From: Chlorobiaceae bacterium
Lineage (GTDB): Bacteria; Bacteroidota; Ignavibacteria; Ignavibacteriales; Ignavibacteriaceae
Length of the DNA: 64,000 nt
Reading direction: 5' to 3'
Assembly: GCA_013824085.1 (NCBI GenBank)
Contig: PNNF01000001.1
Span: 124,001 to 188,000, forward strand
Shown here: positions 7,086-40,180 of the stretch, piece by piece
Numbering within the stretch: position 1 is the first letter of the stretch
Layout: the number at the start of each line of letters is the position of its first letter
The notes under the pieces: generated by a model
What the model saw: only the letters and a program-made list of their open reading frames with translations
What the model was told of the DNA's origin: nothing
Databases searched by the model: none
Translations under genes and position numbers: made by a program

Positions 7086-8660
7086 CTATTTAGCAAAAGC
7101 AACTTTACGAACTTCTCGGATAACAGTAACTTTAATTTGTCCGGGATATTCCATTTCATTTTCAATTTTTAGTGCAATATCAGTTGCAAGTTTTTCTGCA
7201 AATATGTCATCAATTTTTTCGTGTTCGACAACAACTCTAATTTCTCTTCCAGCCTGAATAGCGTAAGTTTTAGCAACGCCTTCAAAAGATTTTGCAAGAG
7301 TTTCCAAAGTTTCTAATCTTTTTACATATCCTTCAATAGGCTCTCTGCGCGCTCCAGGTCTTGCTCCACTAATAGCATCAGCAGCTTGAACGAGAACAGC
7401 AATCGGGTGTTCCATCTCCATATCTTCGTGATGAGAACCGATAGCATTTGCAACAATTGAATTCTCTCGATATTTTTTTGCAATCTCGTAGCCGATTAAA
7501 GCGTGTGGTCCTTCGATTTCTTTATCAACAACTTTTCCGATGTCGTGCAACAATCCCGCTCTGCGTGCTAACATCTGATCTATTCCTAATTCAGCTGCCA
7601 TAATTCCGCAGAGATACGCAACCTCAACACTATGTCCTAATAAGTTTTGACCGTAGCTCGAACGATATCTCATTTTTCCAACAAGTCTCATAATATCGTT
7701 GTGCATTCCGTGCAAGCCGAGTTGAAGAACAGTGTGCTCACCTTCTTTTAAAATATCTTCTTCTAATTCAGTTCTAACTTTTTCAACTACTTCTTCAATA
7801 CGAGCTGGATGAATTCTTCCATCAGCAATTAATCTTTCGAGCGAAACTCTTGCAACTTCCCTTCTGAATTGATCGAAAGAAGAAAGGATAACAGCTTCAG
7901 GAGTATCATCGACAATAACATCAACACCGGTAGCGGCTTCAAGGGCACGAATATTTCTTCCCTCTTTTCCAATTATTCTACCTTTTAATTCATCATTCTG
8001 AATTTGTACTACGGAAACAGTTGATTCTACTGAGTGATCTGCTGCTGTTCTTTGAATTGCGTGAACGATAACTTTTTGAGCTTCTTTTTTAGCTTCAGAT
8101 TTAGCTTTTTCGTAAATCTCTTTTACAACTTTTGTGCTCTCGCTTTTTGCATCTTGAACCATATTTTCAAGTAGCATTTTTTTAGCTTCTTCAGAAGTTA
8201 GCCCCGAAATTTTTTCAAGGCGTTCATTCGTCTCTTTTTCGATTCGAATAGTTTCTTGCTCTCTGGTTTCTAAATTTTTTCTCTTGTCAATTAAACTTTG
8301 ATCAAGAATCTTATTCTCTTTTTCTTTCTTCAACAAAACATCAAGTTTTTTATCAAGATTTTCTTCCCTTTGTGCGAGTTGTTTTTCTTGATTTTGAAGT
8401 TTTTGTCTTTTCTGATTTACTTCAGTATCAAATTCAATTTTCTTTTTGTACCATTCATCTTTAACTTCAAGAAGCTTTTCTTTTTTAATATTATTAGCTT
8501 CTTTTTGCGCATCACTAATTATAACTGTTGAACGTTCCTCGGCGGCGAGAATACTTTTTTTTCCAATTTTTGAATTTGCTTTCCAACCCAAATAAAAAAA
8601 TAGCGTAATTAATATCACCACCATTGGGATGAAAATTAAAAGATCCATATGATATTGCAT
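7086..8660 (-). CDS. rny: Ribonuclease Y
   Basis: This 524-aa membrane-anchored endoribonuclease initiates mRNA decay. It has one N-terminal transmembrane helix (residues about 6-25), a long charged coiled coil (about 30-200), a KH domain with [15 protein letters not shown] near 228 and an HD domain with the metal-binding HDIGK near 370. The start is well supported: TAGGAGG lies just upstream of the ATG at 8660, an unusually strong ribosome binding site for this window. The gene follows the 6S RNA and zapA. The coiled-coil region produces misleading open frames on the other strand. Confidence 0.97.
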
Positions 8661-8681
8661 TTTGCCTCCTATTGATTAAAT

Positions 8682-8880
8682 CCGCGCCGCCGGTTACTGT
8701 CGAACAAGGAAAGAACCCCGAAACCGACAGTGTGGGAAATTGCCTAATGTTTTTTGCTTCCAACGTCTCCGGAGAGAATCCCGATAAATCGGAATTAAGG
8801 CCTGCAATACACACTCAGAGTCAATAACCCAAGGTTATGTAACTTGATGGTTCTTTTTTGTTACTTTCCCGGCGGAGCGG
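8682..8880 (-). ncRNA. ssrS: 6S RNA (SsrS), regulator of RNA polymerase
   Basis: The 226-nt gap between zapA and rny has no credible gene but folds as a rod. Bases 8880-8869 (CCGCTCCGCCGG) pair with 8693-8682 (CCGGCGGCGCGG) as a 12-position closing stem with one mismatch. Inside, 8815-8810 pairs with 8734-8729 (AGTGTG/CACACT), and 8808-8804 pairs with 8743-8739 (ATTGC/GCAAT), leaving unpaired flanks like the 6S central bubble. The implied length, 199 nt, is typical of 6S RNA, which mimics an open promoter and sequesters housekeeping RNA polymerase. The zapA-side location matches the known 6S neighbourhood in other bacteria. The region is GC-richer than its surroundings. Ends are set by the stem and are approximate. 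Confidence 0.8.
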
Positions 8881-8886
8881 AAAATT

Positions 8887-9183
8887 TTAAGATGGGTTCG
8901 GCATACTAACTTGGTTCAAAAGAATTTTTATTTTCTTTATTTTATCATTTGACTGAATAAGAAACTCCTTATTCATATTTTTTTCGAGAAAGTAATCATA
9001 CGCAATATTTAAAGCAGAAATTATTGCAATCGTTGCTACCTCTTGTTCGGGTAAATCTTCCTTAGTCTCTTCCATTATTCTATTCACATAGACTGCTAAC
9101 TCTTGAGCAATCTCCTCATTGTCAACTAATAATGAATATTCTTTGTCAAATATTTTTACTTTCAGTTTCTTTTTTTCAGTCAT
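8887..9183 (-). CDS. zapA: Cell division protein ZapA
   Basis: This 98-aa protein has the ZapA layout: a short beta N-terminus (LKVKIFDKEYSLLVDNEE) and a long helix (VATIAIISALNIAYDYF, then a coiled-coil tail). ZapA bundles FtsZ filaments at the division ring. Its stop lies 6 nt before the 6S RNA, and the coiled-coil gene upstream is 28 nt away. No strong Shine-Dalgarno precedes the ATG. Confidence 0.88.
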   Translation of the reverse strand: MTEKKKLKVKIFDKEYSLLVDNEEIAQELAVYVNRIMEETKEDLPEQEVATIAIISALNIAYDYFLEKNMNKEFLIQSNDKIKKIKILLNQVSMPNPS

Positions 9184-9211: not shown

Positions 9212-9523
9212 TTATGAACTACTTAAATGATAATTGATTTTACTAATCATTTCATTTATTCTTTGCTTTAATGATTCTCTCTCTTTTAGACTAAGAGAGG
9301 CACTAAATATTGTTGATGAATCAGCTTTTGTATCTAAATCGTTTTCCAACGAGGATAATTGTAACTTCAAGTATTCATTATCTCTTTTAATATGATTTAA
9401 TTGATTTTCCAAGTCAGTATTTTTTTTTATTAAATCATTGAACCTTTCAACAAGAATTGATACTTGAACTTCTAATGATGTTAATTCATTTAATTGAATT
9501 TCATATTTAGATATTTCTGGCAA
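9212..9523 (-). CDS. Small coiled-coil protein, ZapB-like candidate (103 aa)
   Basis: The protein is almost entirely a heptad-rich coiled coil (residues about 15-65: SLEVQVSILVERFNDLI, then NTDLENQLNHIKRDNEYLKL) with a second short helix near 80-97. It starts with TTG at 9523, immediately after the pheT stop (TAA at 9526-9524), with GAGG seven bases before the TTG supporting that start. Coiled-coil partners of ZapA such as ZapB have this size and shape. Position directly before zapA makes a division-ring role a reasonable inference, but sequence similarity to ZapB is not demonstrable by eye. Confidence 0.7.
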   Translation of the reverse strand: MPEISKYEIQLNELTSLEVQVSILVERFNDLIKKNTDLENQLNHIKRDNEYLKLQLSSLENDLDTKADSSTIFSASLSLKERESLKQRINEMISKINYHLSSS

Positions 9524-39251: not shown

Positions 39252-39258
39252 AGCTTTG

Positions 39259-39606
39259 TGGAGGTGGCGGGAATCGAACCCGCGTCCGAAATCATGTCTC
39301 AGAAAACATCTACATACATAGTCAGTTTATATTTTGGTTTAGGGTTATCAAATTGACAAAATTAATCTAAACCTGCTTGATGTTGTTTCATTACCAGAAC
39401 TCAAGCGAATTATGATAACAATCGCATCTAAACGTCGTTCTTAATTAACCGATACGCAAACCAACCAAGAACGGCTGCTTAAATTAAGCAGCTAGGGCGT
39501 AAGTATTTTCGCCAGTTATATTTTTACCTAATGTTTAACGTGTGTTTAGGGAAACACGGCATGCAGTTTAAAGCTACTATAATCCCGTCGAAACCAATGC
39601 ACCCCC
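39259..39606 (-). ncRNA. ssrA: tmRNA (transfer-messenger RNA), tag GENTYALAA
   Basis: The - strand starts GGGGGTGCATTGGTTTCGAC at 39606 and ends with the tRNA-like half CGGGTTCGATTCCCGCCACC followed by TCCA at 39259. GGGGGTG pairs with CACCTCC (7 bp, one G-U); the discriminator is A and CCA is not encoded. The tag reading frame GGC GAA AAT ACT TAC GCC CTA GCT GCT TAA runs 39513-39484, encoding GENTYALAA then stop. This fits tags ending in ALAA that are degraded by ClpXP. A GCTGCTT/AAGCAGC hairpin (39493-39475) follows. The RNA rescues stalled ribosomes with SmpB. Only 19 nt separate it from the cobalamin adenosyltransferase stop. Confidence 0.97.
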
Positions 39607-39625: not shown

Positions 39626-40180
39626 TTAGGTGGATTTATTCCAGCTAATATCTGAATTACCTGAAATTTTATTTTCATAACGTGAAAGAACAAACAAAAA
39701 ATCTGAAATCCTATTTAGAAAAATAACAATATTTTGATTAATTTTTTCAGAATGTTTTAAATGAACTACTTCCCTCTCTGCGCGACGGCAAACAGTTCTT
39801 GCAATGTGCAAAATTGATGCTGCTTTTGTTCCGCCCGGTAAAATAAAAAATTGTATCTCATCTAACTGCGTTGAAAAATCATCTATCATATTTTCATAAA
39901 AACTAATTTCTTCTTGACTTATCCTCGGAATCGATATTTTTTTAGAATCATAATCAAGTGGTGTTGCTAAGTCAGAGCCAAGAGAAAATAAATCTGATTG
40001 AAGTTTAATAAGTACACTCTCAGTTTTTTTACTTAGTCCTTCAGCAATTGCCAAACCAAGAAAAGAATTCAGTTCATCAACCGTTCCATATGCTTCAATT
40101 CTATCTGAATCCTTCGTTACTCTTTTTCCTCCGAAGAGACTCGTTTCTCCTTTATCACCAGTTTTAGTATAAATTTTCAT
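39626..40180 (-). CDS. Cob(I)yrinic acid a,c-diamide/cobalamin adenosyltransferase, PduO type
   Basis: The 184-aa trimeric-type ATP:cob(I)alamin adenosyltransferase begins KIYTKTGDKGETSLFGGKRV, followed by YGTVDELNSFLGLA, and has the RTVCRRAEREVV helix near residue 130. It makes adenosylcobalamin from reduced cobalamin and ATP. No B12-dependent mutase or reductase is adjacent. It directly precedes tmRNA on the same strand and follows ygfZ by 17 nt. Confidence 0.94.
   Translation of the reverse strand: MKIYTKTGDKGETSLFGGKRVTKDSDRIEAYGTVDELNSFLGLAIAEGLSKKTESVLIKLQSDLFSLGSDLATPLDYDSKKISIPRISQEEISFYENMIDDFSTQLDEIQFFILPGGTKAASILHIARTVCRRAEREVVHLKHSEKINQNIVIFLNRISDFLFVLSRYENKISGNSDISWNKST

What the first reader, a model, noticed from the sequence alone, without database searches (positions are those of the whole stretch)
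8682..8880. 6S RNA hidden in the zapA-rny gap
A 199-nt rod-like RNA with a 12-position GC-rich closing stem (8880-8869 with 8693-8682) and inner helices flanking a bubble fills the space between zapA and rny. Length, shape and neighbour match 6S RNA. Its 5' end is only 6 nt past the zapA stop, so it may be processed out of the pheS-pheT-zapA transcript rather than made from its own promoter.
Basis: partly seen in the sequence, partly recalled or inferred. Interest (0 to 1): 0.5.

Follow-up and report, generated by a model that had tools for sequence, protein, structure and literature searches.

The report
6S RNA between zapA and rny
Between a cell-division gene and an RNA-decay gene of an uncultured Ignavibacteria bacterium lies a roughly 200-letter RNA that looks like a lineage-specific form of 6S RNA, a known regulator that bacteria use to park their RNA polymerase.

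Summary
Window 8682-8880 (minus strand) folds as a rod with an 11-pair closing stem and starts 6 nt after the zapA stop. It is a 6S RNA homologue. Rfam RF00013 (6S) aligns full length at E 2e-6, though 38.1 bits is below Rfam's cut-off of 46.4. In 37 relatives 94% of pair cells hold, against 37-51% when partners are slid, and 22 of 39 pairs have two-sided changes. A model built from them (R1) finds one confident copy in the window's genome and matches in 159 of 296 genomes of the phylum. Of 20 such loci checked, 17 have rny downstream, and 19 of 19 upstream ORFs scanned are ZapA. The curated 6S-Flavo RNA sits directly upstream of rny in 12 of 12 loci, and R1 recognises it in 3 of 11. RNA polymerase binding and pRNA synthesis are inferred, not tested. 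Two side findings go further. Outside the window's clade, 25 of 60 loci have a boxA (rRNA-antitermination) core upstream of the 6S RNA, against 1 of 356 control windows. The 3' half of the bubble also carries a hairpin whose loop region holds one strand of the helix that pRNA synthesis should open.

The parts
8682..8880 (-). 6S RNA homologue, body (full covariance-model match 8675-8886)
   Evidence: RF00013 1-187, 38.1 bits, E 2e-6; fold; R1 142.6 bits, G000:C1:132676-132884:-; next best 15.2 bits
8869..8880 (-). closing stem P1, 5' strand
   Evidence: pair probabilities at least 0.98 for 11 of 12 positions; helices 1-2, two-sided changes in 7 of 9 pairs
8682..8693 (-). closing stem P1, 3' strand
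8849..8855 (-). P2 5' strand AAGAACC; by analogy with E. coli and B. subtilis the pRNA template would start just 3' of it (inferred)
   Evidence: 97.7% of 259 cells paired, two-sided changes in 11 cells vs 2.4 shuffled; 0 or 1 broken pair per position in 84 sequences
8711..8717 (-). P2 3' strand GGUUCUU (also in the loop region of hairpin H3)
8831..8848 (-). 5' strand of the central bubble (limits taken from P2 and the GGG helix)
8718..8733 (-). 3' strand of the central bubble (limits taken from P2 and the CCC helix)
8828..8830 (-). GGG, first helix of the upper arm, 5' strand (pairs with CCC 8736-8734)
   Evidence: (81, 84 and 84 of 84 paired)
8734..8736 (-). CCC, first helix of the upper arm, 3' strand
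8748..8806 (-). upper arm with the conserved UGCAGGCC (8806-8799) and GGAAGCAAAAAACA (8761-8748); the apical part between them varies in length
8696..8731 (-). hairpin H3: ACUGUCG 8731-8725 with CGACAGU 8702-8696, holding the P2 3' strand in its loop region
   Evidence: probability 0.89-0.99; 82 of 84 sequences, mean z -2.76; column covariation not significant
8839..8864 (-). hairpin H5: GUAAC 8864-8860 with GUUAC 8843-8839, holding the P2 5' strand in its loop
   Evidence: probability 0.94; 69 of 84 sequences, mean z -1.65
8914..8925 (-). candidate degenerate boxA / leader element inside zapA (ATTCTTTTGAAC); role uncertain
   Evidence: (synonymous constraint at codon columns 92-93)
8887..9183 (-). 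zapA (upstream neighbour, same strand)
   Evidence: PF05164 44.2 bits
7086..8660 (-). rny, RNase Y (downstream neighbour, same strand; start codon 21 nt after the RNA, AGGAGG at 8670-8665)
   Evidence: PF12072 174.9 bits

Best explanation
The zapA-rny gap encodes a 6S RNA of a lineage-specific type. Shown: a rod of about 200 nt with a closing stem, P2, an internal bubble and an upper arm, conserved with compensatory changes in relatives and related to Rfam's 6S and 6S-Flavo RNAs. [quoted passage not shown] Inferred from this anatomy: once pRNA synthesis peels P2 open, its 3' strand falls into the strong 3' hairpin H3. H3 would then act as the release hairpin, playing the part of the 3' hairpin of E. 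coli 6S RNA. The RNA is probably made as part of, or close to, the zapA-rny transcript and trimmed.
For: RF00013 full-length match at E 2e-6. 14 of 40 R1-type copies from other genomes also match RF00013 over 1-187 at E up to 0.1, and no other of 4227 families does at that level. Covariation: 94.0% of cells paired vs 37-51% slid, 22 of 39 pairs and 125 cells with two-sided changes vs 13.4 and 40.5 shuffled; 90% vs 39-46% in 84 distinct sequences. R1 finds 53 of 54 loci not used for the model, a single confident copy in the own genome and 159 of 296 genomes of the phylum, own genome included. ZapA lies upstream in 19 of 19 scanned ORFs and rny downstream in 17 of 20 loci. 6S-Flavo lies directly upstream of rny in 12 of 12 loci, with ZapA upstream in 10 of 10 scanned, and R1 hits 3 of 11 of them at that place. 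A 6S RNA was detected, with evidence for its pRNAs, by dRNA-seq in Bacteroides thetaiotaomicron (PMC7366714, passages).
Against: No copy scanned reaches Rfam's gathering score: window; 0 of 20 loci; best 40.8 bits of 46.4; 26 of 40 copies do not match RF00013 even at E 0.1. R1 misses 8 of 11 6S-Flavo loci, and RF01685 does not match the window RNA. The whole-genome tool with RF00013 gave no match in this genome; most likely its first look lost the copy that the local scan scores at 38.1 bits. Single-strand thermodynamics disfavours P2 (MFE -73.0 vs -69.2 with P2 forced). The structures counted were taken largely from the same alignments, which favours them over slid versions. No expression, RNAP-binding or pRNA data for this organism were found.
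Confidence: 0.93

Rival explanations
1. The element is only a cis-acting structured 5' leader of rny (for example an attenuator or RNase Y autoregulation site) and not a 6S RNA.
For: It lies upstream of rny on the same strand in 17 of 20 sampled loci, ends 21 nt before the rny start codon, and has no terminator in the window.
Against: It matches 6S and no other Rfam family at E below 1, has the 6S architecture, and shares its place with curated 6S-Flavo. In 3 of 20 phylum loci no rny was found downstream although the RNA is kept (YmdB is downstream in L181).
Confidence: 0.03
2. An Ms1-like RNA: 6S-shaped, but bound to core RNA polymerase without sigma and not used as a pRNA template (the last point recalled).
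For: Ms1 is described as structurally related to 6S but binding core enzyme (abstract of PMC9130861 as listed), so shape alone cannot separate the two.
Against: Sequence and structure align to RF00013 (I did not check whether Rfam holds an Ms1 model); it shares a locus with 6S-Flavo, and evidence for pRNAs is reported for a Bacteroides 6S RNA.
Confidence: 0.03
3. Biogenesis rival: the RNA has its own promoter inside the 3' end of zapA and is not cut from the zapA transcript.
For: Synonymous constraint in the last codons of zapA: columns 92-98 1.69 and 99-105 1.79 times expectation, peaks 3.65, 2.35 and 2.90 at CTT CTT and CCA. The two blocks are separated by exactly 24 nt in 33 of 56 relatives (4 have 21-27, 19 do not fit the pattern).
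Against: No sigma-70-type promoter near the RNA start. The blocks resemble no promoter known to me, and the first lies about where relatives outside the clade have boxA, an RNA element. The start of zapA (columns 8-14) is also constrained (1.53), so the signal is not unique to the 3' end.
Confidence: 0.35
4. Chance rod: an AT-rich genome with one GC-rich spacer that folds well.
For: Single-sequence fold significance alone is moderate (z -3.86).
Against: Covariation with shuffled and slid controls, recurrence at one locus across the phylum.
Confidence: 0.01

Closest known systems
6S / SsrS RNA (Rfam RF00013)
   Same: Full-length alignment 1-187, closing stem, P2, central bubble, upper arm; zapA upstream as in beta- and gamma-proteobacteria (PMC7641849, passages).
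   Different: Below Rfam's cut-off (38.1 vs 46.4 bits); downstream gene is rny rather than FAU1/ygfA or EVE; the 3' bubble hairpin holds the P2 3' strand in its loop region, whereas in E. coli the hairpin forms between the 3' bubble and that strand (PMC8876501, passages).
6S-Flavo RNA (Rfam RF01685)
   Same: Same place: upstream of rny in 12 of 12 loci, ZapA upstream in 10 of 10 scanned; R1 hits 3 of 11 at the same place; boxA-like core upstream in 5 of 11.
   Different: RF01685 (108 positions) does not match the window RNA (E up to 10; one search gives only chance-level hits elsewhere in the genome).
Bacteroidales-1 RNA (Rfam RF01693, '6S-Bacteroidales RNA suggested')
   Same: Overlaps 6S-Flavo at the same zapA-rny locus in L211, L218 and L219 (3 of 6 scanned, sub-threshold).
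   Different: No match to the window RNA.
B. subtilis 6S-1 RNA
   Same: A 3' bubble hairpin that already forms in the free RNA (PMC8876501, passages).
   Different: Different neighbours (recalled); a central-bubble collapse helix is inferred for it, which was not tested here.

Membership tests
6S RNA (functional class) | rod of roughly 180-200 nt with closing stem, large internal bubble and upper arm, conserved by compensatory change | tested here: met
6S RNA (functional class) | homology to recognised 6S RNAs | tested here: met
   E 2e-6; 14 of 40 copies at E up to 0.1; R1 on 6S-Flavo loci, 3 of 11
6S RNA (functional class) | binds RNA polymerase holoenzyme with the main sigma factor | not testable with these tools
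   none
6S RNA (functional class) | serves as template for pRNAs from the 5' bubble strand | not testable with these tools
   P2 and the adjacent 5' bubble strand are conserved; no transcript data
Rfam RF00013 as a database family | bit score at or above gathering (46.4) | tested here: not met
   38.1 bits; 0 of 20; best 40.8
Rfam RF01685 6S-Flavo | match to the model | tested here: not met
   (no match at E up to 10)
Rfam RF01685 6S-Flavo | same genomic place (zapA - RNA - rny) | tested here: met
boxA (NusB/NusE antitermination element) upstream of the RNA in the window | match to GYTCTTT, the core of the boxA consensus | tested here: not met
   exact core in 1 of 56 of the own clade (controls 4 of 332); window copy ATTCTTTTGAAC departs from it
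boxA upstream of 6S RNA in other lineages of the phylum | match to GYTCTTT, present in rrn leaders of Ignavibacteria | tested here: met
   GTTCTTTGA upstream of 16S in 6 of 9 loci that hold its 5' end; 25 of 60 vs 1 of 356 control windows; binding of Nus factors not testable here

The most novel reading that the evidence does not exclude
Across Bacteroidota in the wide sense, zapA - boxA - 6S RNA - rny is one conserved transcription unit. The untranslated 6S stretch is carried through by an rRNA-type Nus antitermination complex, and RNase Y mRNA starts life with a 6S RNA at its 5' end. RNA polymerase parking and RNA decay would then be tied together through one transcript: maturation of 6S RNA, perhaps by RNase Y itself, would set RNase Y supply. 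A hint in the same direction is the RIP-seq report that RNA polymerase binds rny mRNA in B. subtilis; its authors suggest that the polymerase may regulate that mRNA, without a mechanism in the passages I saw (PMC11077062).
Probability: 0.22. Interest if true: 0.68.

Novelty: new member of a known kind. Interest (0 to 1): 0.42.

Why it matters
It fills a gap: every Ignavibacteria copy scanned here falls below the cut-offs of the three 6S-type Rfam models. A single model (R1) and a fixed gene place (zapA-rny) now link these RNAs to 6S-Flavo. That gives a cheap way to annotate them across a phylum. It also raises two testable points: a boxA element in front of 6S RNA, and a lasting link between 6S RNA and RNase Y. 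The boxA survey of protein genes in gamma-proteobacteria states that it did not consider non-coding RNAs (PMC5725501, passages).

Tried and rejected
RF00013 and RF01685 searched in the own genome with the genome search: no match to the locus and only chance-level RF01685 hits. I take this as a loss in that tool's first look, because the local scan gives 38.1 bits.

A plain MAFFT alignment of 60 whole gaps gave a weak consensus (-15.5). Aligning the 5' and 3' halves apart gave -60.8 with the canonical rod.

Claim that H3 covaries column by column: not supported in A1 (79.2% paired vs 33-53% slid, but 20 to 198 of 500 shuffles reach the observed values). Only the per-sequence folding supports it, and those sequences are related. 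H3's 5 pairs are among the 39 pairs.

Claim that the window itself has a boxA: rejected as shown, since its clade has the exact core in 1 of 56 (controls 4 of 332). A degenerate form is possible: CTTCTT in 36 of 56 vs 0-7 of 54-56 in each of six control windows; [GA][CT]TTCTTTT[AG]AA in 11 of 56 vs 0.

The Fisher value for 25/60 vs 1/356 (1.3e-22) treats related loci as independent and is not used as evidence of that size. The 60 loci hold one locus twice (L074 = L194, neither with boxA); grouped at 80% identity over 150 bases they form 42 clusters, 18 with boxA, and at 70% 26 clusters, 9 with boxA.

Sigma-70 promoter and intrinsic terminator scan: nothing near the RNA; 2 promoter-like sites in 741 bases vs 2.9 expected, no terminator vs 0.4 expected.

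Rows dropped before counts: 3 loci without a held zapA (L041, L048, L073); 4 gaps that the trimming rule could not handle (L089, L009, L016, L032) and L020, leaving 84 of 89 distinct gaps. One kept row (L047) was cut at a wrong place in its 3' half. A1 uses 37 of the 38 short ones; L042 was left out, and L011 and L014 were cut shorter at the 3' end. In one search the ORF picked upstream in L189 was not ZapA-like and was not scanned; no ZapA-like ORF was seen there. Of the 13 RF01685 genomes, 12 loci were fetched by the search and 11 wider stretches were read. The upstream ORF of 1 of those 11 (L219) was not scanned; it is nearly identical to L218's.

Of one search's 296 genomes, those without a match are not shown to lack 6S RNA (strict filters; only 8 candidates per genome scored).

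The paper of Wehner et al. 2014 on 6S dissemination was not held, so I cannot say whether it already lists Ignavibacteria. No paper held both '6S RNA' and 'Ignavibacter'; none held '6S RNA', 'RNase Y' and 'zapA'; the single paper with '6S RNA' and 'boxA' is on Shigella invE regulation, judged from its listing.

Full report
What was checked. The minus-strand stretch 8880-8682 lies between zapA (8887-9183; PF05164, 44.2 bits) and rny (7086-8660; RNase Y, PF12072, 174.9 bits). Upstream on the same strand are a ZapB-like ORF (below Pfam's cut-off), then pheT, pheS, L20, L35, IF3 and thrS. The RNA body starts 6 nt after the zapA stop and ends 21 nt before the rny start codon. The closing stem 8880-8869 with 8693-8682 forms 11 of 12 pairs. 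The fold is better than shuffles (z -3.86).

Family search. Rfam at gathering thresholds finds nothing here. A sensitive scan of 361 bases finds RF00013 (6S) over all 187 model positions, window 8886-8675, at 38.1 bits and E 2e-6 (gathering 46.4); the next best of the other five listed matches has E 1.4. Named relatives show that the genome belongs to Ignavibacteria: of the best 80 (of 209) loci encoding RNase Y, 53 by my count carry an Ignavibacteria, Ignavibacteriae, Ignavibacteriales, Ignavibacteriaceae or Ignavibacterium label, the rest broader or neighbouring labels such as Bacteroidetes or Melioribacteraceae. None of 20 relatives' loci reaches gathering for any Rfam family. In 40 short stretches around R1 hits that I picked, 14 match RF00013 at E up to 0.1 (5 of 20, 9 of 20), all over positions 1-187, and no other family appears at that level; 26 of 40 do not match.

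Comparative structure. 107 loci (89 distinct gaps, the window's own included) have a zapA-rny gap that could be cut out. Eighty-four of the 89 were aligned in two halves, and RNAalifold returns the canonical rod: closing stem, P2 (AAGAACC with GGUUCUU), bubble, GGG/CCC and the upper arm. Of all pair cells 90% hold, against 39-46% when the partner is slid by 1-4 columns. On a separate MAFFT alignment of 37 sequences (A1) the named structure (the consensus plus P2 and H3 named by me) has 94.0% of 1431 cells paired vs 37-51% slid; 22 of 39 pairs have two-sided changes vs 13.4 in shuffles, and 125 cells vs 40.5, with 0 of 500 shuffles as high. Because these structures were taken largely from the same alignments, the slid control favours them; the shuffles do not allow for relatedness. 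P2 alone: 97.7% paired, 11 two-sided cells vs 2.4, 0 of 500 shuffles.

Distribution. Model R1 finds 53 of 54 loci that were not in its alignment; some are close relatives of its rows, many are not. The missing one, L048, holds only about 120 bases upstream of rny. The own genome has one strong copy (142.6 bits; next 15.2 bits, E 0.64). In the phylum 159 of 296 genomes, the own one included, have a match at E up to 0.01, one per genome except G013 with two. In 20 such loci that I picked from other families and classes, the nearest upstream ORF is ZapA in 19 of 19 scanned, and RNase Y lies downstream in 17 of 20. In L181 YmdB follows instead.

Bridge to a curated 6S RNA. RF01685 (6S-Flavo) matches 13 of 118 genomes of the phylum at E up to 0.001, 4 over the cut-off. 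All 12 loci fetched have rny directly downstream on the same strand, and 10 of 10 scanned upstream ORFs are ZapA. R1 hits 3 of 11 of these loci at that very place (E 2.7e-6, 7.9e-5, 0.033) and misses 8. RF01693, whose Rfam description reads '6S-Bacteroidales RNA suggested', overlaps the same place in 3 of 6, below its cut-off. The window RNA is therefore read as the orthologue of 6S-Flavo by position and as a homologue of 6S by sequence and structure. That 6S-Flavo is a 6S RNA is the view of the paper that described it (PMC2864571, passages). A Bacteroides 6S RNA, with evidence for pRNAs, was detected by dRNA-seq (PMC7366714, passages).

How it probably works. Known for the family (PMC8876501, passages): 6S RNA imitates an open promoter in the main holoenzyme; a pRNA is then made from the 5' bubble strand and release follows. 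In E. [quoted passage not shown] subtilis a smaller 3' hairpin already exists in the free RNA. Here the free window RNA is predicted to hold two hairpins instead of P2: H3 (probability 0.89-0.99) and H5 (0.94), with P2 at 0.006. The energies are -73.0 kcal/mol and -69.2 with P2 forced. The predicted hairpin in the 3' bubble segment encloses the P2 3' strand with at least 3 pairs in 82 of 84 sequences (mean z -2.76), and H5 encloses the P2 5' strand in 69 of 84 (mean z -1.65). Column-wise covariation of H3 is not significant. The loop regions of H5 and H3 hold the two complementary strands of P2. So the two states could be alternatives, a rod for binding and hairpins after release, or could coexist as kissing loops; neither was tested. 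P2's own covariation says that P2 does form at some stage.

Leader and biogenesis. rRNA operons of Ignavibacteria carry GTTCTTTGA, a boxA sequence: 77-150 nt upstream of 16S in 6 of 9 loci that hold its 5' end, and downstream of 16S in 6 of 7 complete ones; L224 has none. The published gamma-proteobacterial consensus is GYTCTTTAANA (PMC5725501, passages). The core GYTCTTT lies within 110 nt upstream of the 6S RNA in 13 of 29 class-level relatives, 7 of 20 phylum loci and 5 of 11 6S-Flavo loci, against 1 of 356 control windows in the same loci. One of the 60 is counted twice, and grouped at 80% identity they make 42 clusters, 18 with boxA. The loci are related, so no formal probability is claimed. 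In the window's own clade the exact core is in 1 of 56 (controls 4 of 332). There the last zapA codons are constrained at synonymous sites (59 genes; columns 92-93 3.65 and 2.35 times expectation, column 103 2.90; blocks of columns 15-91 1.0-1.3; but columns 8-14 also 1.5), with the two blocks separated by exactly 24 nt in 33 of 56. This could be a degenerate boxA, a promoter or a processing site. A boxA would make sense where an untranslated structured stretch must be crossed before rny. No promoter or terminator was seen next to the RNA. By a crude rule a T-rich tail follows the closing stem in 17 of 29 relatives outside the clade and 15 of 56 inside; the window has none.

Literature. zapA-ssrS neighbourhood is known in beta- and gamma-proteobacteria (PMC7641849, passages). 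No paper in the held library has '6S RNA' with 'Ignavibacter', none has '6S RNA' with 'RNase Y' and 'zapA', and the one with '6S RNA' and 'boxA' is on Shigella invE, judged from its listing. Wehner et al. 2014 could not be read. RNA polymerase binding of rny mRNA in B. subtilis is reported in PMC11077062 (passages).

Verdict. A real 6S RNA homologue, not annotated by Rfam at its cut-offs, in a place conserved over much of the phylum. The kind is known. The boxA-like leader, the link to rny and the H3/H5 anatomy are the parts worth testing.

Noticed in passing
window 39685-39691, - strand: An exact boxA core (GTTCTTT) lies 79-85 nt upstream of the tmRNA gene (39256-39606, tag peptide GENTYALAA). 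The core GYTCTTT occurs 29 times on both strands of the window, so chance is possible.
   Followed up: partly
L209, L212, L213, L215, L217 (and 20 other loci): boxA-like GYTCTTT upstream of 6S-Flavo and of R1-type 6S RNAs: 25 of 60 loci vs 1 of 356 control windows.
   Followed up: yes
window 8887-8928, - strand: The 3' end of zapA in the window's clade is constrained at synonymous sites, with two blocks a fixed 24 nt apart in 33 of 56 relatives.
   Followed up: partly
L181: In one lineage the gene after the 6S RNA is a YmdB-like phosphodiesterase instead of rny; in B. subtilis ymdB is a neighbour of rny (recalled).
   Followed up: no
L211, L218, L219 near 2058-2294: Rfam families RF01685 (6S-Flavo) and RF01693 (Bacteroidales-1) match the same RNA place.
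   Followed up: no
window 8710-8716, - strand: The 3' strand of P2 together with its next bases (GTTCTTT) itself reads like a boxA core.
   Followed up: no
window 9212-9523, - strand: ZapB-like ORF between pheT and zapA, below Pfam's cut-off (22.8 vs 31.5 bits).
   Followed up: no
G000 (whole genome): the genome search with RF00013 returned no match in this genome although the local scan gives 38.1 bits: a negative from that tool is weak evidence.
   Followed up: yes
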